From: Pannonibacter phragmitetus DSM 14782 | GTDB lineage: Bacteria > Pseudomonadota > Alphaproteobacteria > Rhizobiales > Stappiaceae | Direction: 5' to 3' | NCBI RefSeq assembly: GCF_000382365.1 | Contig: NZ_KB908219.1 | Span: forward strand, 1 to 64,000 | DNA length: 64,000 bases | Shown: one piece after another, positions 4,885 to 53,624 of the stretch | Layout: each line of letters opens with the position of its first letter | Numbering within the stretch: the stretch's first letter is position 1 | Made by a program: the position numbers and the translations under genes | Notes under the pieces: model-generated | Told to the model about the DNA's origin: nothing | Databases searched by the model: none | Seen by the model: only the letters and a program-made list of their open reading frames with translations

Positions 4885-6297
4885 ATGTCTCTGGCGGCCA
4901 TGCAGGTGCAGGTGAAACGCAACGAGGACGGCATCGCCGCCGTGAAGGCCGCATTGTCTGCCCGTTTTGGCGAGCGGTGCTTCACCTCCGCAGCCGTTTG
5001 CGAGCAGCATGGCCACACCACGACCTGGCTGCCGAATCAGGCGCCGGACGTTGTGGTCTTTGCGCAGACGACGGAAGAGGTGGCGGAGATTGTCCGGCTC
5101 TGTGCTCTGCACAAGGTGCCGGTCATCCCCTTCGGCACCGGTTCCTCGCTGGAAGGCCACGTGAATGCCCCCGGCGGCGGCGTCTCCATCGATCTCAGCC
5201 GCATGAACAGCATTCTGGAAGTGAATGCGGAAGATCTCGACTGCGTGGTGCAGGCCGGTGTGACGCGCTCGCAGCTGAATGCCTTTATCCGTGACACGGG
5301 CCTGTTCTTCCCCATTGATCCGGGCGCGGATGCCAGCATCGGCGGCATGGCGGCAACCCGCGCTTCGGGCACCAATGCGGTGCGCTACGGCACCATGAAG
5401 GATGTGGTGCTGGGGCTGACCGTGGTGACGGCGGATGGCCGCATCATCCGCACGGGCGGCCGGGCGCGCAAATCCTCTGCCGGTTATGACCTGACCCGGC
5501 TGTTCGTCGGTTCGGAAGGCACGCTGGGCGTGATCACGGAAGTGACGCTCCGGCTCTTCGGCCAGCCGGAAGCCATATCCGGCGGCGTCTGCCCCTTCCC
5601 GGATGTGGATTCGGCCTGCAACGCCGTGATCATGACCATCCAGTCCGGCATTCCGGTGGCGCGGATCGAGCTTCTGGACAAGATGCAGGTGCGCGCCTGC
5701 AACGCCTATTCCAAGCTGGATCTTGAGGAGACGCCGACGCTGTTCCTCGAATTCCACGGCACGGCCTCGGGCGTGAAGGAGCAGGCAGAACTGTTCGAGG
5801 CGATTGCGGCGGATTGCGGCGGCGGCACCTTCCGCTGGTCATTGCAGGCGGAGGAGCGCACCAAGCTCTGGACGGCGCGCCACAACGCCTATTTCGCGGC
5901 GCAGGGCCTGCGCCCCGGCTCCAAGGCGGTGTCAACGGATGTCTGCGTGCCCATCTCCCGCCTTGCCGAATGCGTGGCTGAGACGGTGGCCGACATCGAG
6001 CGGCGCGGGCTGCTGGCGCCCATCGTTGGCCATGTGGGCGACGGCAATTTCCACACGCTGGTGCTGGTGGATGTCAATGATCCGAAGGAGTTGGCGGAGA
6101 GTGAAGCCTTCATCGAGCAGATGAACTGGCGCGCCATCGAAATGGGCGGCACCTGCACCGGCGAGCATGGCGTGGGGCAGGGCAAGATGAAATATCTGAA
6201 AAAAGAGCATGGAGACGCACTGGATGTGATGCGTACCCTTAAAATTGCCCTTGATCCGGATAACATCATGAACCCGGGCAAGATCGTGCTCGTGTAA
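4885..6297 (+). CDS. FAD-linked oxidase, probable D-lactate dehydrogenase (cytochrome type)
   Basis: The protein has 470 residues. It carries an N-terminal FAD-binding type 4 domain (about 50-190) with IPFGTGSSLEGH and DPGADASIGGMAATRASGT, then the FAD-oxidase C-terminal domain with the metal-site motifs HVGDGNFH (about 385) and CTGEHGVGQGK (about 425). This pattern fits the GlcD/DLD family, which oxidises D-2-hydroxy acids such as D-lactate or glycolate and passes electrons to a cytochrome or quinone. No glcE or glcF partner is adjacent, which favours a single-subunit D-lactate dehydrogenase. The start at 4885 has GAGGAG seven bases upstream. The next gene begins 33 bases later and may be co-transcribed. 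Confidence 0.88.
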   Translation: MSLAAMQVQVKRNEDGIAAVKAALSARFGERCFTSAAVCEQHGHTTTWLPNQAPDVVVFAQTTEEVAEIVRLCALHKVPVIPFGTGSSLEGHVNAPGGGVSIDLSRMNSILEVNAEDLDCVVQAGVTRSQLNAFIRDTGLFFPIDPGADASIGGMAATRASGTNAVRYGTMKDVVLGLTVVTADGRIIRTGGRARKSSAGYDLTRLFVGSEGTLGVITEVTLRLFGQPEAISGGVCPFPDVDSACNAVIMTIQSGIPVARIELLDKMQVRACNAYSKLDLEETPTLFLEFHGTASGVKEQAELFEAIAADCGGGTFRWSLQAEERTKLWTARHNAYFAAQGLRPGSKAVSTDVCVPISRLAECVAETVADIERRGLLAPIVGHVGDGNFHTLVLVDVNDPKELAESEAFIEQMNWRAIEMGGTCTGEHGVGQGKMKYLKKEHGDALDVMRTLKIALDPDNIMNPGKIVLV

Positions 6298-45609: not shown

Positions 45610-45789
45610 TCTTCTTCCCTTGAAAATCTGAAGTAAGCTCCGCGCAAGCGTCGGCACTTATAAGGCCATGACTTAAGGGTTGCATGGCCTCTTTGATGCA
45701 GCCTTGAATGGATCGCCGGAGCGTGTGCTTGCATCTTCCTGCTTGTAACTATCGCGCTCGTTCCGGCCATGGTTTCGCGCGGAGTCCCT

Positions 45790-46746
45790 ATGAAATCCTC
45801 TCTTGCAGCCGCTGCTCTGATCGCTCTGGGCAGCCTGCCTGCTGCCGCTGACACGCTGGCCGAAAAGCCGGATTGTGCGGCCGATCTCGCCTATGCTGTG
45901 ACACTGCTCGACGAACTGCAGATCTGGCGCAGGATTGAGCCGCGCCCCGACATGGTTCCAGTCGAGGAAAACGGGCGTTGCGTGCTGCGCAAGGGGGGCT
46001 TTTCCTTTTTCGGAAAGGGGCTGCCTTATCAGATCGAAATGGATGAGGTGGTATGGGCCGTGACGTGGGGCGAGCCCGGGCGCGTATCGATACCACAGAA
46101 GCTTGTGCTGGACATCAAGAACAGCCAGCGCACACCGCTTGTGGCGGGCCTGGATGCTGAAATGGTGGAGTTGATCGAGAGTTTGGAGTCCAGTTCCTGG
46201 AGCCTTCATTTTGACTATGCGATAGGGCCGGATTGGGACTGGCTGGAGCTGAACCGTTTCGGCTTCACTGGTCCAACCGGTGATGCCGTCCAGATATCCG
46301 GACGGCTTCAGCTCGTCGAAGATACGCTGCCCCTGGAGCCAAATCAGGCGCATCAAGAGAAAGATCTTGGCATCAAGAGTTTGGAGCTTAAGGTGCAGGA
46401 TGAGGGATATCTAGAAATAACGGCCCTTTCTACATTCAAGCGCATGCAGCAAAAATTGCAATGGCCGGAGAAAAGCTCCGATTTTTTTGTCAAACTATTG
46501 CTATCTGATGGGGTAAGGCAATTGCCCGAAGGGCTGGTGGATCAGCATAGTCGTTCAGCGCTTCTGGCCATGGTCAAAATGCTACCGCACCCTCATGGCA
46601 TCATGCATTTTAAAATAAACTCCGAAACTGGTCTCTTCCTCAACGACATCGAAGCTCTTGAGGAGGGCGGGGAGGAGCCCTTGGTGGAGAGATTGCAGCG
46701 CGCGGGCATCACGATCTCCGCAAGGCATGAACCCGTTCTTCCCTGA
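45790..46746 (+). CDS. secreted protein of unknown function, paralogue 1
   Basis: The 318-residue protein has a signal peptide (about 1-20, SLPAAADT) and no membrane segment. It is not recognised as a named family. Motifs shared with the next gene: CAADLAYAVTLL, PVEENGRCVLR, DEVVWAVTWGE, PQKLVL and LPEGLVDQHSRSALLA. Each protein has a Cys in the CAAD and NGRC motifs that could bond. The two genes are tandem, 138 bases apart, with a common start context (GGAGTCCC/T ATGAAATC). Confidence 0.75.
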   Translation: MKSSLAAAALIALGSLPAAADTLAEKPDCAADLAYAVTLLDELQIWRRIEPRPDMVPVEENGRCVLRKGGFSFFGKGLPYQIEMDEVVWAVTWGEPGRVSIPQKLVLDIKNSQRTPLVAGLDAEMVELIESLESSSWSLHFDYAIGPDWDWLELNRFGFTGPTGDAVQISGRLQLVEDTLPLEPNQAHQEKDLGIKSLELKVQDEGYLEITALSTFKRMQQKLQWPEKSSDFFVKLLLSDGVRQLPEGLVDQHSRSALLAMVKMLPHPHGIMHFKINSETGLFLNDIEALEEGGEEPLVERLQRAGITISARHEPVLP

Positions 46747-46884: not shown

Positions 46885-47868
46885 ATGAAATCGCTGTTCG
46901 CCACTGGCGCCCTGATCCTTGCGGGCTGCGTTTCTGCTGCCGGCAGTGCGCAGGCTGCGGAAATTGGCTGCGCTGCCGATGTGGCCTATGCCGCTTCCGT
47001 TCTCGAAAAGGCGGCGACTGAGCGCGCCGGTGCGGCGCTTTCCGCGATGACGCCGGTGGAGGAGAATGGCCGCTGCATTCTGCGGGATGTTTCCCTGCCT
47101 TTGACCGAAGGGATGGTCACCTACACCATCGAGGCGGACGAGGTGGCCTGGAACGCGCAATGGGGGGAGGACGGCCGGGAGATCGCGCCACAGAAGCTCG
47201 TGCTGGAGATGACCGGCGCGCGCAACATCCCGATGTTCGAGGGCATGCCTGAGTCGATCTATCAGATGCGGCTGATTGGGGAGAGGAACCGCGGCAGTGT
47301 TCATCTCGACTATGAGCTGGACCCGGAGCGCAAGCAGCTGGCGCTGAACCGGCTTGAGATCGATATGGGCAGCGGCACCCGGATGCGAACGGCGGCGCGG
47401 CTTGAGGCGTTTGATCTTCCGGCGCTGCTGGCCGAGCCGGCGCAGATGGACAAGGTGGCGCAGATCCGGCTGCATGAGCTTGACCTCAAGCTTGAGAATG
47501 GCGGCTTCTTTGAATCGATGTCGGCGGTCTGGATTGCTTTCCTCTATCCGGCTTTCGGGGGAAGCCCTGAAACTGCCGTCGAGGCCGCGAAGCAGCTGCT
47601 GACGGAGCGGGTTGAAAAGCTCCCGGATCCGCTGGTGGATCAGGACAGCCGCAAGGCATTGGCCTCCATCATTGCATCCGTTCCTCATCCCGCCGGTCTG
47701 ATGCATGTGAATGTCAGCTCGGTGAAGGGGATTTCGACACTGGATTTCGCGCCTCTGGCCGCGCTGGGGCCGGTGACCCTTGAGGCCCTGCTGCCCCATC
47801 TGGATGGCGTGAAGATCACCGTGCGCCATGATGACGTGCCTTCCTGCGTCTGCGAGAGCCGCTGGTAA
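46885..47868 (+). CDS. secreted protein of unknown function, paralogue 2
   Basis: The 327-residue protein is a paralogue of the preceding gene. It begins MKSLFATGALILAGCVSAAGSAQAAEIGCAADVAYAASVL: both a lipobox (LAGC) and a conventional cleavage site (AQA) can be read, so it could be a lipoprotein or fully secreted. Shared motifs are PVEENGRCILR, DEVAWNAQWGEDG, PQKLVLEM and LPDPLVDQDSRKALASI. It ends SCVCESRW, with two additional cysteines. A terminator follows. The function is unknown; the tandem duplication suggests a pair with related roles. Confidence 0.78.
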   Translation: MKSLFATGALILAGCVSAAGSAQAAEIGCAADVAYAASVLEKAATERAGAALSAMTPVEENGRCILRDVSLPLTEGMVTYTIEADEVAWNAQWGEDGREIAPQKLVLEMTGARNIPMFEGMPESIYQMRLIGERNRGSVHLDYELDPERKQLALNRLEIDMGSGTRMRTAARLEAFDLPALLAEPAQMDKVAQIRLHELDLKLENGGFFESMSAVWIAFLYPAFGGSPETAVEAAKQLLTERVEKLPDPLVDQDSRKALASIIASVPHPAGLMHVNVSSVKGISTLDFAPLAALGPVTLEALLPHLDGVKITVRHDDVPSCVCESRW

Positions 47869-47935: not shown

Positions 47936-48218
47936 GTCCGGTAGTGTGAATTAAATCCTTGGTTGTACCTGGTTGCAAAGATCTGGCGGGCGGTACATGC
48001 CCTTCCGCCCTCCGCAGCTTCGCGTATTCAGGGTTGTGCGGGTGGTGTGTTTTTCATTTTCTTCTTATGCGTGTGGTGGCGTGCAGCCGATTCCTGATGG
48101 CTGCCCACCGGCAAATGTTCTTCTGATTTCAGGTTTTGAAACTGAATACGCGAGAATATCATGCTTAACAAAGTATTAAATTATTAATTTGTGGCTATAA
48201 AAAATCCCGCTAAGGTTG

Positions 48219-48242
48219 TCACGAAGGAATTTCTTCTGCGTC
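48219..48242 (+). promoter_or_regulatory. reb-locus element TCAC-N16-CGTC, copy A (before sigma factor gene)
   Basis: TCAC (48219-48222), 16 bases, CGTC (48239-48242). If it is a promoter, transcription starts near 48249, 65 bases before the ATG at 48314, and the sigma factor would activate its own gene. Confidence 0.65.
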
Positions 48243-48313
48243 TATCCAGACAAGCCCAGAGGGTGAGAGGGTCTGCGTCGAAGACTTTCGTGGTTGAAAC
48301 CGGGAATCGCGCA

Positions 48314-48925
48314 ATGACGAGTGTTTTGCCTGCAAACGGATTATGGACCAGCTGGATTGATGACGCGCCTGTGCTGCGGCGCCGGGCGTTGCGCCTGACG
48401 AAGGGGGACAGGGAAGAGGCGGAGGACCTGCTGTCCTCCACCCTGATCAAGGCGATCTCACACGTTGAGCGTGCAGAGACCCATATCCGTGAACCGCGTG
48501 CCTTCCTGCTCTTTGCGCTCAAGAACGAGTACATCAGCAGGTTGCGCCGCAAGAACTCGGAGCGTCAGGTGCGGGATTTCTCGGCTGACATCTACGAGGA
48601 CAACGACACGGGTTTTGCGGATGTGCGCCCCTCCCAGGAGCACCTGCTCTGGCAGCAGGAAATCCTGCGCCGGGTGATGACCGTCATGAATTCCCTGTCT
48701 GCCGAACACCGGCGGATTTTCGAGCTGCGCTTCTGCGAGGAGCAGAGCTACCGGGACATCGCCGATGTGCTGGGTATCTCGGAAGCGCTGGCGCGCAAGC
48801 GGGTGCAGACCCTGCGCCAGACGCTGAGGGCAGCCCTTGGTGAAACCGGGCAGGAGCACTGGAACCAGCCGCAGGAACGGGTGTCAAAAACCGCCCCCTC
48901 GCGGCCCTCACGGACGAAAGCCTGA
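48314..48925 (+). CDS. ECF-type RNA polymerase sigma factor of the reb locus
   Basis: The 203-residue protein has sigma region 2 (about 15-85: ALRLTKGDREEAEDLLSSTLIKAISHV, then EPRAFLLFALKNEYISRLRRKN) and region 4 (about 125-185: SLSAEHRRIFELRFCEEQSYRDIADVLGISEALARKRVQTLRQ), with no region 3, as in ECF sigma factors. I use ATG 48314 (MTSVLPANG). An in-frame GTG at 48191 would place the candidate promoter inside the gene, so it is less likely. No anti-sigma factor gene is recognisable next to it. Four of the five downstream reb genes carry the same upstream element as this gene, so it is the probable activator of the locus. Confidence 0.88.
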   Translation: MTSVLPANGLWTSWIDDAPVLRRRALRLTKGDREEAEDLLSSTLIKAISHVERAETHIREPRAFLLFALKNEYISRLRRKNSERQVRDFSADIYEDNDTGFADVRPSQEHLLWQQEILRRVMTVMNSLSAEHRRIFELRFCEEQSYRDIADVLGISEALARKRVQTLRQTLRAALGETGQEHWNQPQERVSKTAPSRPSRTKA

Positions 48926-48931
48926 CGCGTC
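48908..48931 (+). promoter_or_regulatory. reb-locus element TCAC-N16-CGTC, copy B
   Basis: TCAC (48908-48911), 16 bases, CGTC (48928-48931). It overlaps the last codons and the stop of the sigma factor gene and lies 42 bases before the first reb gene. Confidence 0.65.
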
Positions 48932-48973
48932 CAGATTTATGTCGGGTCATCGCAAACCGAACAGGAACAGGAA

Positions 48974-49201
48974 ATGGCCGATCAGCTTGTAAATTCCCAG
49001 ATCACCGATGCGGTCACCCAGACCAACGTGAAGGTGGTCGCCGAAGCGCCGTCCCAGGCCATCGCGAGCCTCTATCAGGTCAGCAGCCATGCGACGGGCC
49101 TGTCGATCCAGAATGCGGTTCACAGCCAGCAGGCTTTGAACCAGGTCATGACGGCGGTCGTCTCCAAGGCGGTGCAGCTGATCATGGAAGTGGGCCAGTA
49201 A
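48974..49201 (+). CDS. short RebB-like R-body protein
   Basis: The 75-residue protein is a shortened Reb-family (R-body) protein: SQITDAVTQTNVKVVAEAPSQAIASLYQVSSHATGLSIQNAVHSQQALNQ matches the first 60 residues of the longer reb proteins at 51.8-53.6 kb (ITDAVTQSNVKVV, LYQS.SHSTG, NAV.AQQ). It lacks the C-terminal part (QTGVSDNLTSLLTVL). AACAGGAACAGGAA precedes the start. Reb proteins of about 100 residues polymerise into the coiled, pH-responsive R-body ribbon; a short form may cap or modify it. Confidence 0.88.
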   Translation: MADQLVNSQITDAVTQTNVKVVAEAPSQAIASLYQVSSHATGLSIQNAVHSQQALNQVMTAVVSKAVQLIMEVGQ

Positions 49202-49286
49202 CATCAGGGCGGCGGTTTTTTCCAGTCCGTCCTTAGGTGCTCACAGGTGCTCCGGTCTGGCCGGGGCGCGATGAGGGAGCTGTGCC

Positions 49287-50249
49287 ATGGCCACGAAAAC
49301 GTTTCTGGACCGCCTGCGCCAGTCTGCCTCCGCCGCCGTGAGCGGAGCGGAGGGGAAAGGCAAGCAAAGAGCCTGGCGGGACGGCTGGCTTTCCGACTGG
49401 ATCCACGGCGGAAAGCCGGCGGCAGACGGGCAGACTCAGCCGGATACGCCGGAGGTCAGCCCGCAAGGCGAAACCGGAGGGGCTTTGACGGTGCCCGTGG
49501 AGGCGAAGCCGCCGGTGGCCGGACATGCGCCCGCCACAGCTCCGGCCACGGCGAAGCCGGCTTCCCGCCTGTCCGCAAGGGCGCCTGATCCCGGAGATGC
49601 TGCTGTTTCGCGGTCTGCTCCGGCGGGGGGGCGGGTGCCCGGAAATGCCGGCGAAGGTTCGCCGGGCTCCGTTAACGTTAACACGAGCCCGTCCGGTCGG
49701 GCGGGTCTTACGTCCCAGACTTCGACCCAGCCCTCGTCCCAGACCTTGCGTCCGGTGAAGGGGCGCCCCGTCAACGGCAGGCCGGTGAACCTTGAGGCGG
49801 CCTTTGCCCCGCAGCTTGAGAAAGACCTGTCAAAGGAGAAAAGAATGCCTGGAGATCCGAATGCCCCGGTGGGCGCGACACCGCCTGACACTTCGGCGCT
49901 GAACAAGCAGATCGTGCAGGCGGTGAACTTCACCAACTATCAGAATCTGGCGAATGCGCCCGCCATGGTCATCACGCCGCCGGAGATGAGCGTCGGTCAG
50001 ACGACCGCCATCGCGGTGCAGGATGCCGAGAGCTACATGAACGCCATCATGCAGATTGCGGTGGCCGGGCAGGCGGTGGCCATCAAGAAGGCGGCGCAGG
50101 GGCCTGCGGGCGAGTTGATCGCCGTGCCGCTGATGGCGGAAATCCAGGCCATGGTGCAGGCGGCCGTCGCCGTCTACGGCAGTGTCAGCACCACCGCCGG
50201 AACCTCGGCCTCCACGGTGATCGGCGACCTGAAGACGGCCGTGTCCTGA
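49287..50249 (+). CDS. R-body-associated protein with long low-complexity N-terminus
   Basis: The 320-residue protein has two parts. Residues 1-185 are rich in Pro, Gly, Ala, Ser and Gln without predicted structure. Residues 186-320 begin MPGDPNAPVGATPPDTSALNKQIVQAVNFTNYQNLANAPAMVITP and resemble Reb proteins in the NKQIVQAVNFTN and LANAPAM motifs and in the alanine-rich helices that follow. An internal ATG (49845) has a very good ribosome site (AAAGGAG, six bases away), so a 134-residue short form may also be made. It lies 85 bases after the first reb gene and is probably co-transcribed with it. Its role is unknown. Confidence 0.75.
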   Translation: MATKTFLDRLRQSASAAVSGAEGKGKQRAWRDGWLSDWIHGGKPAADGQTQPDTPEVSPQGETGGALTVPVEAKPPVAGHAPATAPATAKPASRLSARAPDPGDAAVSRSAPAGGRVPGNAGEGSPGSVNVNTSPSGRAGLTSQTSTQPSSQTLRPVKGRPVNGRPVNLEAAFAPQLEKDLSKEKRMPGDPNAPVGATPPDTSALNKQIVQAVNFTNYQNLANAPAMVITPPEMSVGQTTAIAVQDAESYMNAIMQIAVAGQAVAIKKAAQGPAGELIAVPLMAEIQAMVQAAVAVYGSVSTTAGTSASTVIGDLKTAVS

Positions 50250-50338
50250 GGGCCTGCGAGCCGCTGAAATCCTGAAGAACAGGCACGGCGAGCGTGCCAC
50301 AGAGGCCGGATCATGCCCGGCCGTTGGGAAGGTGTGTC

Positions 50339-50767
50339 ATGGAACTGAGTACGGATGGCTTGTGCCGCGATCTGGAGGTGCTGATCCAGTGCTTCCTTGA
50401 AAACTGGGCCGAGGAGATTGGCCAGACCTGCGATGTGCCGGGAGAGGAAACCCTCTTCAATGTCTATCCTCAGGTCATCACGCAACTGTCCTGGGCGCGT
50501 ACGGCGCTGGGACAGGCGGGCCAGTTGATGAGCCTTGCCGGTAGCGGCGAGGTGACGGCGGTCACCACCTGCGAGATGACAGCCGTGTTTGAAGCGGGGG
50601 ACGCAACCGGGGCCGAACGCGGAGCCAGGGAGGCATCCTGCAATTCCGACAGCCTGATGCGCGATGCGCTTGCCTTCATCAGCCAGTCCATGCGCAGCAC
50701 CGGCCGTTCGGCCAAGACCCGAAAGGAGAGCGAAAATGACGGACGTAGAGACCGGTGCCGGAGTTGA
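50339..50767 (+). CDS. unknown protein of the reb locus
   Basis: The 142-residue protein opens MELSTDGLCRDLEVLIQCFLENWAEEIGQTCDVPGEETLF and contains AALGQAGQLMSLAGSGEVTAV-like helices; it has no signal peptide and no recognised family. Its last 30 bases overlap the start of the next gene. The position between two R-body-associated genes suggests an assembly or regulatory role; an anti-sigma function is possible but nothing in the sequence shows it. The start is ATG 50339 with GGAAGG about seven bases upstream. Confidence 0.7.
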   Translation: MELSTDGLCRDLEVLIQCFLENWAEEIGQTCDVPGEETLFNVYPQVITQLSWARTALGQAGQLMSLAGSGEVTAVTTCEMTAVFEAGDATGAERGAREASCNSDSLMRDALAFISQSMRSTGRSAKTRKESENDGRRDRCRS

Positions 50768-51641
50768 GCCCAAGGCTGAAACGGCATCCACGCAGCCGGA
50801 CAGCCAGTCCGGCAGTCAATCAGGGGCGCAGCCCTCCGCACAGCCGCCTGCACAGGCTGCTGTGCAGTCTGCCACCGAGAATGCGGGGCAGATTCCGGGA
50901 GTTCCGGCACCTCAGGTGGACGTGATCAAGGTGACCCCGCCTGAGGTGCCCATTCCCGGGGTCAAAGTGCCTGTGATGACCCCGCCTGCCGGCCCTGCCT
51001 CCGGGGCTGATGCAGACAGTGGCCGCGGAGACGGGCGCGACGCCGGGCGGAGTGAAGGCCGTGGTGCGGGGCGCGGCGGGGATGAGGCCGCTGCAGCCGG
51101 AGCCTCCGGCCAGGCGGCAGGGGCTGCCACCGGCGAGTTCGTCCGAGATTTGGCCGGTAGTGGTGCGGATGGCAAGGACGCAGGCTCCGGCGGTGCTGCA
51201 ACAGGGGCGCAGCTGCTGCGCCAGCTGCTCATCGAGCATCTGAAGGTCGCTGCCCTGCAGTCCGGCTATGCTCAGGTCACCCAGGCACTGCCGAAGGTTC
51301 TGGCGGCCGGGATCGAGGCAGGGCAGCGCAAGAAGGCTGCGGATCTGGCCTATGAAGAGGGGCTGGCGGTTGCGGTCAAGGTGCTGACCAGTGCCCGTGA
51401 TGCGGCGAAAAACCTCTCAAGCTCCATTCAGGGCGAACAGGAGACGCTGGCCAAGCTGCTGGCCAACAACGAGGAACTGGTGAAGCTGCCGCCGGATGCG
51501 GTGAAGGCCCTGAGCGTGATGGAGCAGATCGGTCACAATCTGGCGACCCAGAAGGCCGGACTGTCGAACCCGGCCGTGCGGCAGGGTCTTCAGTATCAGA
51601 TCGAGCAGATGAAGCAGCATCTGGCAGGAAATCCTCGCTGA
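50736..51641 (+). CDS. R-body-associated protein with Ser/Gln/Pro-rich N-terminus
   Basis: The 301-residue protein starts MTDVETGAGVEPKAET with AAAGGAGA upstream. Residues 1-160 are low-complexity (Gln, Ser, Pro, Ala, then Gly, Asp, Arg), and residues 165-300 are helical: LLRQLLIEHLKVAALQSGYAQVTQALPKVLAAGIEAGQRKK and AKNLSSSIQGEQETLAKLLANNEELV. Not recognised as a family. Same two-part plan as the 49287 gene. It overlaps the previous gene by 32 bases and ends with a terminator, closing the first reb transcription unit. Confidence 0.75.
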   Translation: MTDVETGAGVEPKAETASTQPDSQSGSQSGAQPSAQPPAQAAVQSATENAGQIPGVPAPQVDVIKVTPPEVPIPGVKVPVMTPPAGPASGADADSGRGDGRDAGRSEGRGAGRGGDEAAAAGASGQAAGAATGEFVRDLAGSGADGKDAGSGGAATGAQLLRQLLIEHLKVAALQSGYAQVTQALPKVLAAGIEAGQRKKAADLAYEEGLAVAVKVLTSARDAAKNLSSSIQGEQETLAKLLANNEELVKLPPDAVKALSVMEQIGHNLATQKAGLSNPAVRQGLQYQIEQMKQHLAGNPR

Positions 51642-51668
51642 TTAGATCTTGATACCGTGAAACACTTG

Positions 51669-51700
51669 CGCCCTTGCGATTAAATCGCAGGGGCGTTTTG
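51669..51700 (+). terminator. rho-independent terminator of the first reb unit
   Basis: CGCCCTTGCGATT and AATCGCAGGGGCG (51669-51695) form a 13-pair stem with one G-T pair, followed by TTTTGATTTG. It lies 28 bases after the 50736 gene. Confidence 0.8.
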
Positions 51701-51741
51701 ATTTGTATTTGTGTTCTGGGATTTAATTTGCACGGAACCTG

Positions 51742-51765
51742 TCACGCGAACTGCTAGTTGGCGTC
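51742..51765 (+). promoter_or_regulatory. reb-locus element TCAC-N16-CGTC, copy C
   Basis: TCAC (51742-51745), 16 bases, CGTC (51762-51765), 58 bases before the reb gene at 51823. A GGAAC motif seven bases further upstream does not keep the same position in the other copies. Confidence 0.65.
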
Positions 51766-51822
51766 TTTTCTTGTGCAGGTGATTGGCTGAACCCGGCCAC
51801 GCCGCAGATCAAGGAGATGAAT

Positions 51823-52143
51823 ATGGCCGCACCCACTACCGTGAGCCCGATGATCACTGATGCCGTGACCCAGTCCAACGTGAAGGTTGTTGCCGAGTCG
51901 CCGGCAATCGCGCTGAGCACGCTCTATCAGTCCATGTCCCACTCGACCGGCATCATGTTCCAGAACGCTGTTGCCGCCCAGCAGCAGCAGAACTCGCTGG
52001 CCCAGGCCGCGACCAACCAGGGCATCATGCAGATCTATTCCGTCGACACGACGGCAGCTGCCGGTGCGACCGAGAAGGTTGCCCAGACGGGCGTGTCCGA
52101 CAATCTGACCAGCCTTCTGACGGTGCTGCAGTCCTTCAGCTGA
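51823..52143 (+). CDS. rebB: RebB-family R-body protein
   Basis: The 106-residue protein is a typical Reb protein: PMITDAVTQSNVKVVAESPAIALSTLYQSMSHSTGIMFQNAVAAQQQQN, then NQGIMQIYSVDTTAAAGATEKV and QTGVSDNLTSLLTVLQSFS. It is close to the genes at 52323 and 53295 and to the R-body subunits RebA/RebB of Caedibacter in size and motif. Such proteins build a hollow, coiled ribbon that unrolls at low pH. AAGGAG is six bases before the ATG at 51823; the in-frame ATG at 51817 touches that site. Own element and terminator. Confidence 0.92.
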   Translation: MAAPTTVSPMITDAVTQSNVKVVAESPAIALSTLYQSMSHSTGIMFQNAVAAQQQQNSLAQAATNQGIMQIYSVDTTAAAGATEKVAQTGVSDNLTSLLTVLQSFS

Positions 52144-52181
52144 CCACAGTCCGCCGGGGACGCACAGACCAGACCAGATTG

Positions 52182-52206
52182 GGGCCGGCTTCATGCCGGC
52201 CCTTTT
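52182..52206 (+). terminator. rho-independent terminator after the 51823 reb gene
   Basis: GGGCCGGC and GCCGGCCC form an 8-bp stem with loop TTCAT, followed by TTTTG. An almost identical hairpin follows the next reb gene. Confidence 0.85.
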
Positions 52207-52242
52207 GTCATGTGAAGTCCTGAGAAATGCCGGGGCGCTCTC

Positions 52243-52266
52243 TCACAGGCGCCTGGGATTGACGTC
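52243..52266 (+). promoter_or_regulatory. reb-locus element TCAC-N16-CGTC, copy D
   Basis: TCAC (52243-52246), 16 bases, CGTC (52263-52266), about 57 bases before the reb gene at 52323. The flanking bases (CTCACA, CGTCCTA, GGTGTA, GGGCC) match copy E. Confidence 0.7.
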
Positions 52267-52322
52267 CTATGAGGTGTAGAGGGCCGCATGCGGTGCTGGC
52301 CCGCCTCAAGGAGTAAAAAGAG

Positions 52323-52655
52323 ATGGCCGATCCTACCACCGTGAGCCCGATGATCACCGATGCCGTGACCCAGTCCAATGTCCAGGTCGTTGGCGATGCG
52401 CCTGCCGTTGCGCTCAGCACGCTGTACCAGTCGCAGGCCCATTCGCTCGGCATCCTGTTCGAGAATGCTGTCGCTGCCCAGCAGCAGCAGTACACCCTGT
52501 CCCAGGCTGCAGCGAACCAGGGCATCATGCAGATCTATTCCGTCAACACCACGGCTGCAGCCGGCGCTTCCGAAAAGGTGGCGCAGACGGGCGTATCCGA
52601 CAATCTGACCAGCCTGCTGACCATTCTCGGCGCGCTGGGCGGCAGCGGCCGCTGA
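52323..52655 (+). CDS. rebB: RebB-family R-body protein
   Basis: The 110-residue protein reads DPTTVSPMITDAVTQSNVQVVGDAPAVALSTLYQSQAHSLGILFENAVAAQQQQ and ends QTGVSDNLTSLLTILGALGG. It is the same family as the genes at 51823 and 53295 and is a likely structural subunit of the R-body. AAGGAGT precedes the start. It has its own upstream element and terminator, so each rebB is a separate transcription unit. Confidence 0.92.
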   Translation: MADPTTVSPMITDAVTQSNVQVVGDAPAVALSTLYQSQAHSLGILFENAVAAQQQQYTLSQAAANQGIMQIYSVNTTAAAGASEKVAQTGVSDNLTSLLTILGALGGSGR

Positions 52656-52702
52656 CGGGGCAGCCTCCCGCTGGCGCTGTTGCCGGCGTCTGCCAGAACT
52701 GG

Positions 52703-52730
52703 GGCCGGCGTCATGCCGGCCCTTGCTTTG
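52703..52730 (+). terminator. rho-independent terminator after the 52323 reb gene
   Basis: GGGCCGGC (52703-52710), loop GTCAT, GCCGGCCC (52716-52723), then TTGCTTT. It is nearly the same hairpin as at 52182. Confidence 0.8.
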
Positions 52731-52821
52731 CATCCCGGCTGCACGCAGCCGTCGCTTGAAAGGCGGTGGAGCAGGGATACTCTGAACCTCTGTTGGCCAT
52801 GAGGTTATCGGGGAGAGGCAG

Positions 52822-53151
52822 ATGGAAGGTGCTGAAGCGGATGGGCCTGACATTTCCGCCTGGGAGGCAGGCAACACCGCCCAGCCCGTGCCCGAGCATC
52901 CTGCATCCCTGCGCAATCTGCTCCATGTATCCACCCATCACTCGACGGGCTTGCTTTTTGAGAACGCCCGCAGCGCGCAAGAAAACTTGAAGGCTCTGGA
53001 ACGGGCTGCCAGATCGGGAACAGATGCTCCTGGAAGCCCCTATCAGGTGCCTATCGGCTTCAGCCCTGCTCTGATCGCGCCGCAGAGCGATGTGCCGGAC
53101 AATATGCTCAGCCTGCTTACTGTATTGAACGCATTCAAAAGCCGGCCCTGA
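52822..53151 (+). CDS. divergent Reb-like protein
   Basis: The 109-residue protein keeps only part of the family pattern: LRNLLHVSTHHSTGLLFENARSAQENLK and SDVPDNMLSLLTVLNAFKS at the end match the other reb proteins, but the N-terminus (ITDAVTQSNVKVV) and the QGIMQIYS centre are replaced. The acidic start (GAEADGPDISAWE) is unlike the rest. GGGGAGAGGCAG precedes the start. No TCAC-N16-CGTC element lies in the 166 bases before it, so it may rely on read-through. It may be a specialised or decaying paralogue. Confidence 0.75.
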   Translation: MEGAEADGPDISAWEAGNTAQPVPEHPASLRNLLHVSTHHSTGLLFENARSAQENLKALERAARSGTDAPGSPYQVPIGFSPALIAPQSDVPDNMLSLLTVLNAFKSRP

Positions 53152-53215
53152 GAGGGGAGCGGAGCAAATTGCTCACGTCATCCACAGTCAGGGATTGAAA
53201 GATGTCCGATCTACC

Positions 53216-53239
53216 TCACACAGACGGCGGGATGGCGTC
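53216..53239 (+). promoter_or_regulatory. reb-locus element TCAC-N16-CGTC, copy E
   Basis: TCAC (53216-53219), 16 bases, CGTC (53236-53239), about 56 bases before the reb gene at 53295; very similar to copy D. Confidence 0.7.
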
Positions 53240-53294
53240 CTAAGGGGTGTAACGGGCCTGAAGCTTCAAAGGCCTGCTTGAAGGAGTGAATTAC

Positions 53295-53624
53295 ATGGCT
53301 GATCCTACCACCGTGAATCCGATGATCACCGATGCCGTCACGCAGTCGAACGTGAAGGTTGTCGGCGAAGCTCCGGCTGTCGCCATCAGCACCCTCTATC
53401 AGTCGATGGTGCATTCGACCGGCATCCTGTTCGAGAACGCCGTTGCCGCCCAGCAGCAGCAGAACTCGCTGGCGCAGGCCGCCGCGAACCAGGGCATCAT
53501 GCAGATCTACACGCTGGACACGACGGCAGCGGCCGGTGCGACCGAGAAGGTTGCCCAGACCGGCGTTTCCGACAACCTGACCAGCCTGCTGACCGTTCTG
53601 AACGCTTTCAGCGGCGGCCGCTGA
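53295..53624 (+). CDS. rebB: RebB-family R-body protein
   Basis: The 109-residue protein reads DPTTVNPMITDAVTQSNVKVVGEAPAVAISTLYQSMVHSTGILFENAVAAQQQQN and ends QTGVSDNLTSLLTVLNAFSGG. It is the third closely related rebB. AAGGAG lies about eight bases upstream of the ATG at 53295; an in-frame GTG at 53286 overlaps the ribosome site. It closes the locus and is followed by a long hairpin terminator. Confidence 0.92.
   Translation: MADPTTVNPMITDAVTQSNVKVVGEAPAVAISTLYQSMVHSTGILFENAVAAQQQQNSLAQAAANQGIMQIYTLDTTAAAGATEKVAQTGVSDNLTSLLTVLNAFSGGR

What the first reader, a model, noticed from the sequence alone, without database searches (positions are those of the whole stretch)
48219..53239. Five identical-spacing elements TCAC-N16-CGTC upstream of the sigma factor gene and four reb genes: a dedicated regulon
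Seen: 48219, 48908, 51742, 52243 and 53216 each start TCAC, 16 bases, CGTC, 42-72 bases before the start codons of the sigma factor gene and four of five reb genes. For eight fixed bases at fixed spacing, uniform composition predicts about one hit per 65 kb and strand, so five correctly placed hits within 5 kb are far from random. ECF sigma factors use such two-part promoters, often with CGT(C/A) in the -10 element. The gene of the sigma factor has one too, implying positive autoregulation and a switch-like, all-or-none R-body response.
Basis: partly seen in the sequence, partly recalled or inferred. Interest (0 to 1): 0.85.

Follow-up and report, generated by a model that had tools for sequence, protein, structure and literature searches.

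The report
Dedicated sigma-factor promoters for R-body genes
A bacterium's genes for R-bodies (coiled protein ribbons that can spring open) carry a matching DNA start signal that is very probably read by a specialised switch protein encoded beside them, and the same pairing recurs in related R-body gene clusters of distantly related bacteria.

Summary
In detail: all five TCAC-N16-CGTC elements lie where stated; a sixth lies on the other strand inside the sigma gene. They occupy 5 of 6 sigma/reb upstream regions, at most 1 in 20,000 simulations; genome-wide the pattern is at chance (104, control 108).

Comparison makes it a promoter set. In the family, 38 of 38 sigma-bearing loci have it before reb1 and 38 of 38 before the first later reb (34 with N16, 4 with N17). 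It tops an unprompted dyad search (75 of 93; control maximum 7). In a phylum-wide draw, 10 of 14 tested reb genes in sigma-bearing genomes have a site, 0 of 11 in sigma-less ones. A second sigma type goes with TCAC-N16-CGTT (34 of 34 testable reb1). The base follows the sigma rather than the taxon; sigma differences are densest in the -10-reading region.

Autoregulation is supported here (23 of 23 Pannonibacter/g4/Roseibium loci) but not general: 2 of 15 Pseudovibrio, 0 of 36 CGTT-type. Switch-like behaviour is untested. The sigma-reb link was published; I found no printed motif.

The parts
47961..47976 (+). direct repeat GGTTGTACCTGGTTGC far upstream of the sigma gene; putative operator of an unknown regulator
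   Evidence: paired GGTTG[TC] boxes upstream of the sigma gene in 22 of 38 family loci; Markov null mean 0.27, largest 2 in 100 runs
48219..48242 (+). promoter element of the sigma gene (TCAC-N16-CGTC), 71 bases before the start codon
   Evidence: same site in 23 of 23 Pannonibacter/g4/Roseibium loci
48314..48925 (+). ECF-type sigma factor, 203 aa, regions 2 and 4 only
   Evidence: Pfam Sigma70_r2 and Sigma70_r4_2; TIGR02937; present in 38 of 40 reb-bearing and 0 of 47 reb-less family genomes
48820..48843 (-). sixth copy of the pattern, inside the sigma gene, wrong orientation; taken as chance
48908..48931 (+). promoter element of reb1, overlapping the end of the sigma gene
   Evidence: reb1 site in 38 of 38 family loci with the sigma
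48974..49201 (+). reb1 (RebB family)
   Evidence: PF11747 E 1e-25
49287..50249 (+). orfA, no known family; C-terminal part conserved in reb loci
50339..50767 (+). orfB, no known family
50736..51641 (+). orfC, no known family
51742..51765 (+). promoter element of reb2
51817..52143 (+). reb2 (RebB family)
   Evidence: PF11747 E 4e-28
52243..52266 (+). promoter element of reb3
52323..52655 (+). reb3 (RebB family)
   Evidence: PF11747 E 1e-26
52822..53151 (+). reb4, divergent Reb; no element of its own, probably read through from reb3 (inference)
   Evidence: PF11747 E 0.0047, below the family cut-off; no site
53216..53239 (+). promoter element of reb5
53286..53624 (+). reb5 (RebB family), GTG start or ATG at 53295
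   Evidence: PF11747 E 5e-27

Best explanation
The five elements are the -35 (TCAC) and -10 (CGTC) boxes of promoters recognised by the ECF-type sigma factor encoded at 48314-48925. When the sigma is made, RNA polymerase carrying it transcribes reb1 (and probably orfA-C behind it), reb2, reb3 (with reb4) and reb5, and in this lineage also the sigma gene itself, which is positive autoregulation. A further input must start the loop; the GGTTGTA repeat at 47961 is a candidate site for it. Shown: the elements, their positions, their conservation, their association with this sigma type, and a base change that goes with sigma residues in the -10-reading region. Inferred: binding, transcription starts, operon extents, the positive loop, and any switch-like behaviour.
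For: Exact sites, 5 of 6 upstream regions against at most 1 in 20,000 simulations. Family: reb1 38 of 38; first later reb 34 with N16 plus 4 with N17 = 38 of 38 sigma-bearing loci, 0 of 2 sigma-less loci. TCAC-16-CGTC is the top 4+4 dyad without prompting, 75 of 93 less-redundant regions, largest count in 15 control sets 7. Sigma gene in 38 of 40 reb-bearing and 0 of 47 reb-less family genomes. Sites at sigma, reb1 and a later reb in Inquilinus (3 loci), Luteimonas sp. Y-2-2-4F and Parvularcula. Draw over the phylum: 10 of 14 tested reb genes with a site in genomes with a sigma relative, 0 of 11 in genomes without (Fisher p 0.0005, or 0.001 without one atypical hit). CGTT sigma type: reb1 34 of 34 testable loci. 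Two Lysobacteraceae with a CGTC-type sigma have CGTC sites, although the other 27 testable Lysobacteraceae loci have CGTT. Sigma differences between CGTC and CGTT users are densest in residues 49-77 (mean JS 0.66, against 0.43 elsewhere and 0.28 in region 4); between groups that share a motif that stretch is not above the rest (0.45 against 0.52; 0.28 against 0.44). Function of the published relative: deletion of fecI2 abolishes rebP1 promoter activity in PA14 (PMC8322103, passages).
Against: No transcription start or binding datum exists for any of these loci in my calls. The pattern is at chance genome-wide, so it cannot by itself name targets. Self-site missing in 13 of 15 Pseudovibrio loci and in the paralogue L100, in all 36 CGTT-type loci and in 4 distant relatives. 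In the phylum draw 4 of 14 tested reb genes in sigma-bearing genomes lack a site, one of the 10 hits (L211) has CGTT and an atypical C after TCAC, only 25 of 47 non-own reb matches were held as loci and tested, the sigma relatives there are only 31-33% identical, and in G104 the sigma lies about 17 kb from the reb genes. The clade split of sigma types is close to one evolutionary event, so the residue correlation is not many independent events; 17 of the 34 divergent columns lie outside both residues 49-77 and region 4.
Confidence: 0.9

Rival explanations
1. The elements are binding sites of another regulator (a two-part operator) that acts on the reb genes, and the sigma gene is only a fellow target.
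For: A repressor or activator site could also have two fixed halves; no binding was measured.
Against: The halves are not repeats or palindromes of each other, the five window sites are all in the same orientation at 42-71 bases from the start, spacing is N16 (N17 in 4 of 40 first later reb genes) as in ECF promoters, presence goes with the sigma gene, and the last base changes with the sigma type while sigma differences are densest in the -10-reading region.
Confidence: 0.06
2. Chance matches, or sequence carried along by duplication of reb genes.
For: The pattern is common genome-wide (104 hits, control 108); the upstream regions of reb3 and reb5 are 50% identical.
Against: At most 1 of 6 in 20,000 simulations; spacers 12-56% identical within the window; also present before the sigma gene, which is no reb; conserved in 38 of 38 reb1 regions with diverging spacers; top dyad.
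Confidence: 0.01
3. The promoters are read by this sigma, but the site before the sigma gene is minor or silent, so there is no effective positive loop; control lies upstream (GGTTGTA box or another regulator).
For: The self-site is missing in 13 of 15 Pseudovibrio loci and in the 36 CGTT-type loci, so the system can work without it; a GGTTGTA repeat recurs upstream of the sigma gene (22 of 38 loci).
Against: Self-site kept exactly in 23 of 23 Pannonibacter/g4/Roseibium loci, and present in Inquilinus and Luteimonas sp. Y-2-2-4F and in two Lysobacteraceae.
Confidence: 0.2

Closest known systems
FecI2 and RcgA of the P. aeruginosa PA14 reb cluster (PMC8322103, passages; PMC4362757, passages)
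   Same: Sigma factor encoded in the reb cluster; reb promoter activity needs it. Pseudomonas relatives examined here have the sigma followed by reb1 and TCAC-N16-CGTT before reb1 (8 of 8 Pseudomonadaceae loci). The PA14 genes themselves were not in my data.
   Different: The 8 Pseudomonadaceae loci have a Crp-like gene beside the sigma and no self-site; the window's family has a self-site, no Crp-like gene among the window neighbours scanned, and a -10 that ends in C. The FecI2 motif is published as a figure whose letters I could not read.
HP2.3 sigma and HP2.4 regulator of Group 2 reb loci (PMC3583457, passages and the section on partners)
   Same: Sigma-like gene whose subfamily occurs only with reb; suggested to regulate reb.
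   Different: The passages and the section I saw report no promoter element.
Labrenzia alexandrii DFL-11 reb cluster (PMC3764935, passages)
   Same: Same neighbourhood: an ECF sigma gene directly upstream of the first reb gene; regulation by extracytoplasmic stimuli was proposed.
   Different: No promoter element or autoregulation described in the passages seen.
ECF41 sigma factors (PMC3426412, passages)
   Same: -35 TGTCACA and -10 CGTC contain the same cores.
   Different: Spacing between TCAC and CGTC is 17 to 18 in the three ECF41 examples that I counted by hand in the passages against 16 here; ECF41 has a C-terminal extension and COE gene neighbours, neither seen here.

Membership tests
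ECF (group 4) sigma factor | regions 2 and 4 without region 3 | tested here: met
   curated-cut-off Pfam hits only to r2 and r4 in 203 aa; TIGR02937 above cut-off
ECF (group 4) sigma factor | two-part target promoter with about 16-base spacer | tested here: met
   TCAC-N16-CGTC as top dyad; function as promoter not measured
ECF (group 4) sigma factor | cognate anti-sigma factor next to the gene | tested here: inconclusive
   no anti-sigma domain found in the neighbours scanned; orfA, orfB, orfC, 45769 and 46885 have no Pfam family
reb-associated sigma (HP2.3/FecI2-like) | occurs only in genomes with reb genes and next to them | tested here: met
   in the family: 38 of 40 reb-bearing and 0 of 47 reb-less genomes, sigma followed by reb1 in 37 fetched loci and the window; exceptions elsewhere: two Lysobacteraceae sigma genes without reb in the stretch held
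reb-associated sigma (HP2.3/FecI2-like) | reb transcription depends on it | not testable with these tools
   shown in print for PA14 (PMC8322103, passages)
reb-associated sigma (HP2.3/FecI2-like) | cyclic-nucleotide-binding (Crp-like) regulator gene in the cluster (a frequent, not a strict feature) | tested here: not met
   none among the window neighbours scanned; a homologue of the P. mangiferae Crp-like gene in 23 of 26 CGTT-type rows, some genomes counted twice, and in 0 of 2 CGTC-type Lysobacteraceae
ECF41 | C-terminal regulatory extension (SnoaL-like, recalled) | tested here: not met
   no extra domain in Pfam at E 0.1 beyond regions 2 and 4 and weak hits below cut-off
ECF41 | TGTCACA ... 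CGTC promoter | tested here: inconclusive
   cores shared; no clear preference for G two bases before TCAC and spacing one or two shorter

The most novel reading that the evidence does not exclude
R-body gene clusters of this type (Group 2 of the 2013 survey, by resemblance) carry a portable sigma-promoter pair that evolves together: the -35 (TCAC) and the 16-base spacing stay fixed while the last -10 base is C or T according to sigma type, with sigma residues 63 and 71 (A/N against G/H) as markers, and the circuit has been rewired between a self-activating form (most CGTC-type lineages seen) and a form controlled by a Crp-like regulator (CGTT type).
Probability: 0.55. Interest if true: 0.68.

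Novelty: new variant of a known kind. Interest (0 to 1): 0.6.

Why it matters
What turns R-bodies on is known for few bacteria. A readable promoter signature tells which reb clusters are likely under this sigma, predicts transcription starts closely, and separates self-activating from probably Crp-controlled circuits. It also gives a natural series of sigma-promoter pairs that differ at one -10 base, useful for the open question of how ECF sigma factors choose that base.

Tried and rejected
A genome-wide regulon: 104 exact hits against 108 for the reversed control. With a narrower pattern (TCACR-N14-RCGTC) 27 hits against 30; five are the reb sites; of the other 22, 19 lie inside an open frame of 120 aa or more on either strand (such frames are common in this G+C-rich genome and need not be genes) and three (L148, L149, L160) do not. 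In three further Pannonibacter genomes the narrower pattern gave 30 against 29, 24 against 36 and 25 against 12; the last is an excess that I did not follow. The L149 place lies between genes that I name dnaG and rpoD from the translations and is conserved in four Pannonibacter genomes; I read it as a sigma-70 promoter that contains the pattern by coincidence, without proof.

Stray CGTC hits without regard to reb genes also occur in CGTT-type loci (one each in L136, L139, L145), and L122 has a fourth hit at 5176.

A palindrome in the spacer of the sigma promoter: 8 of 19 distinct spacers have an arm of 4 or more against 17% in shuffles, too weak.

An explicit regular expression for the palindrome before CGTT-type sigma genes matched nothing (too strict); the evidence for it is the dyad count (GTGT-N10-ACAG in 30 of 36) and (TGTC-N9-ACAG in 8 of 11).

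Residue 71 as a code for the last base by itself: N71 aligns with N88 of M. tuberculosis SigH (alignment; residue numbers from passages of PMC6411747), which contacts the base before the last one, and SigH with N88 reads GTT; so N71/H71 is a marker in this family, not a general code.

ECF41 membership: rejected for lack of the C-terminal extension and for spacing.

Two reb-bearing genomes without the sigma (G002, G003) were searched for the element: none.

Rows dropped or not seen before counts: one search kept 93 of 117 regions (near copies and short ones removed); one search found the sigma in 39 Lysobacteraceae genomes but gave loci for 30, and of the other nine I fetched two (L281, L282) and did not examine seven; one search had 36 loci, 2 without a reb gene in the stretch, 2 of the 39 rows labelled CGTT (L135, L240) have no reb gene nearby, so their label rests on sigma type only, and L100 was left out; one search tested 25 of 26 non-own loci (L207 gave no reb frame) out of 47 non-own matches listed; one search holds some genomes twice (for example L141 and L273).

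The FecI2 motif of PMC4362757 is in a figure; its letters are not held.
Full report
What is there. The window lies in a genome of 4.78 Mb in 39 contigs; the nearest named relative by the sigma gene is Pannonibacter indicus (99% identical). The region reads sigma factor - reb1 - orfA - orfB - orfC - reb2 - reb3 - reb4 - reb5, all on the + strand. The sigma protein has regions 2 and 4 of sigma-70 and no further domain above a curated cut-off. Four proteins match RebB (PF11747) strongly; the one at 52822 only weakly, below the family cut-off. orfA-C match no Pfam or NCBIfam family at E 0.1.

The observation. All five elements are at the stated coordinates, 42-71 bases before the start codons. A sixth copy lies on the opposite strand inside the sigma gene. 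Counted over the window the excess is modest (mean 2.01 in shuffles; 2 of 100 shuffles reach 6), but 5 of the 6 sigma/reb upstream regions of 120 bases hold the element, and none of 20,000 Markov simulations gave more than 1. The regions are otherwise unlike (90-base identity 29-50%, spacers 12-56%).

In the whole genome the exact pattern occurs 104 times against 108 for its reversed control, so there are many unrelated copies, at the chance rate; the eight bases alone do not define targets. Narrowed by the flanking preferences seen below (TCACR-N14-RCGTC), 27 remain against 30 for the control; five are the reb sites, and 19 of the other 22 lie inside an open frame of 120 aa or more. Three other Pannonibacter genomes gave 30 against 29, 24 against 36 and 25 against 12; the last is an excess I did not follow. 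I therefore treat the local cluster and its conservation as the evidence.

Conservation in the family. RebB was sought in 87 genomes of the family and found in 40; the sigma was found in 38, all among the 40; none of the 47 reb-less genomes has it at E 1e-10. I fetched 39 reb loci besides the window plus one paralogue. Sigma followed by reb1 and orfA, and later reb genes, is shared by the 37 fetched sigma-bearing loci except that L063 gave no orfA match (in L087 and L097 the later reb lies on the other strand). TCAC-N16-CGTC precedes reb1 in 38 of 38 sigma-bearing loci including the window; the first later reb gene has it in 34, and the remaining four sigma-bearing loci have it with 17 bases between the boxes; the two sigma-less loci have neither. 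Later reb genes in tandem mostly lack a site of their own (all later reb genes together: 42 of 97 with the exact element), as expected for operons. Among all dyads of two 4-mers with gaps 8-22, enumerated without prior choice over 93 less-redundant regions, TCAC-16-CGTC ranks first with 75; the largest count of any dyad in 15 control sets was 7. The spacers diverge freely; T or G before TCAC, A or G after it, and G before CGTC are preferred (counted on sites chosen by the exact core).

Outside the family. A scan of the genome collection with the sigma alignment gave 45 loci. Besides the family, Inquilinus (3 loci), Luteimonas sp. Y-2-2-4F and Parvularcula carry the same element at the sigma gene, reb1 and a later reb gene (the sigma start is uncertain in Parvularcula, which also has two hits on the other strand). 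In Lysobacter, Luteimonas endophytica, Zoogloeaceae, Pseudomonas mangiferae and one unnamed gammaproteobacterium the upstream regions of reb1 share TCAC-16-CGTT instead (10 of 10; first later reb 6 of 6). I then looked at Pseudomonadaceae (8 of 348 genomes with the sigma) and Lysobacteraceae (39 of 297): of the 36 loci tested, 34 have a reb gene in the stretch and all 34 have TCAC-N16-CGTT before it (7 Pseudomonadaceae, 27 Lysobacteraceae). The seven Pseudomonadaceae loci are new to the set; the Lysobacteraceae overlap it in part, and seven of the 39 were not examined.

Does this sigma read it? Three tests. First, presence. Drawing 398 genomes evenly from the phylum gave 11 with a RebB match, the window's own among them. 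Of the nine others that I carried forward, four have a relative of the sigma and five do not at E 1e-10 (the weak match G166 was not carried on). Of the reb matches held as loci, 10 of 14 in the four have a site (one, L211, atypical) and 0 of 11 in the five (Fisher p 0.0005, or 0.001 without the atypical one); 25 of 47 listed non-own matches were tested. The four sigma relatives are only 31-33% identical to the window's, and in G104 the gene lies about 17 kb from the reb genes. Second, taxon against sigma. Two Lysobacteraceae loci (L281, L282) have CGTC sites at the sigma gene and at reb genes, and their sigma is of the CGTC type, although the 27 other testable Lysobacteraceae loci have CGTT; L122 is a third such case. 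Third, residues. A tree of 83 sigma proteins puts the CGTC users in one clade (100/100) except the long-branch Parvularcula row; the unassigned paralogue L100 falls inside it. Of 13 columns that separate the types under a strict cut, 10 lie in residues 49-75 and one in region 4. With a looser cut 34 columns diverge: 15 in residues 49-77 (29 columns), 2 in region 4, 17 elsewhere; mean divergence is 0.66, 0.28 and 0.43. Between groups that share a motif, residues 49-77 are not above the rest (0.45 against 0.52; 0.28 against 0.44). This stretch corresponds to the part of SigH that holds the -10 bases (alignment; residues in passages of PMC6411747), and exchange of the neighbouring loop is reported to change the preferred -10 base (passage of PMC8103513). 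Residue 71 is N in all 43 CGTC rows and H in all 39 CGTT rows (two of the CGTT rows have no reb gene nearby), and N in two further CGTC-type sigmas and in the four distant relatives. Caveats: the split is nearly one event, SigH with N at this place reads GTT, and N88 of SigH contacts the base before the variable one.

Autoregulation. The sigma gene has its own element in 23 of 23 Pannonibacter, g4 and Roseibium loci, 2 of 15 Pseudovibrio loci, and not in a paralogue; also in Inquilinus, Luteimonas sp. Y-2-2-4F and two Lysobacteraceae. None of 36 CGTT-type loci has a CGTC or CGTT site before the sigma gene (one, L250, has TCAC-N16-CGTA) and none of the four distant relatives has one. CGTT-type sigma genes instead share a dyad GTGT-N10-ACAG (30 of 36) that reads as a palindrome of the form TGTCACCCAGGTGACA in several (sequences). 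A homologue of the P. mangiferae Crp-like gene (domains) lies in 23 of 26 CGTT-type rows, some genomes counted twice, and in 0 of the 2 CGTC-type Lysobacteraceae; this matches the published HP2.4/RcgA association (PMC3583457, PMC8322103, passages). In the window I see no Crp-like gene among the neighbours scanned, but a GGTTGTA repeat upstream of the sigma gene: 22 of 38 family loci have a pair of such boxes, against a null mean of 0.27 and a maximum of 2 in 100 runs; 16 loci lack a pair by my rule. In the window it is at 47961-47976. I propose it as the site of the unknown regulator that starts the loop.

A side effect of packing: in the window the reb1 -35 box lies in the last codons of the sigma gene, where TCACGG reads as Ser-Arg. 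The Pannonibacter, g4 and Roseibium rows of the alignment all end in such an SR or SQ tail (16 of 16 rows), which I take as the same overlap; I did not check each at the DNA level.

What is known. That a sigma gene accompanies these reb loci and may regulate them is in print (PMC3583457, passages and one section; PMC3764935, passages), and in PA14 fecI2 and rcgA are needed for rebP1 expression, which is stochastic (PMC8322103, passages). Full-text searches (listings, capped) showed no paper that I recognised as naming a promoter element for reb genes; PMC4362757 shows a FecI2 logo as a figure I could not read, so the element may be partly known for Pseudomonas.

Verdict. A dedicated sigma regulon is very likely (0.9). 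Autoregulation in this lineage is likely (about 0.8). The all-or-none response remains a hypothesis.

Noticed in passing
window 47961-47976; upstream of the sigma gene in family loci: GGTTGTA boxes as direct repeats (Pannonibacter, Roseibium) or mostly inverted repeats (Pseudovibrio) upstream of the sigma gene: 22 of 38 loci with a pair, null mean 0.27.
   Followed up: partly
L227-L262 and L263-L280, around the sigma gene: CGTT-type sigma genes share GTGT-N10-ACAG (30 of 36); a Crp-like gene lies in 23 of 26 CGTT-type rows, upstream of the sigma in Pseudomonadaceae and Zoogloeaceae, behind it by 3-7 kb in Lysobacteraceae.
   Followed up: partly
L149 near 1501 (G000 contig C3, 224496): A TCAC-N16-CGTC copy between genes I read as dnaG and rpoD is conserved in four Pannonibacter genomes; probably part of a sigma-70 promoter, but a link to the housekeeping sigma gene is not excluded.
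   Followed up: partly
window 45769-46746 and 46885-47868: Two adjacent genes upstream of the sigma gene, similar by eye and without a Pfam family.
   Followed up: no
L066-L068 and L073-L078, just before the estimated sigma start: Nine Pseudovibrio loci have, by eye, an inverted repeat like GTAATACAT...ATGTATTAC in place of the self-site (sequences); its right arm contains an ATG that may be the true start.
   Followed up: no
L122, L281, L282: CGTC-type sigma with self-site in three Lysobacteraceae, a family where the other testable loci carry the CGTT type: suggests transfer of whole clusters between classes.
   Followed up: partly
L135/L270 and L240/L275: Two Lysobacteraceae sigma genes of the CGTT type with no reb gene found in the stretches held.
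   Followed up: no
G010: In one Pannonibacter genome the narrower pattern is in excess of its control (25 against 12), unlike in the other three.
   Followed up: no
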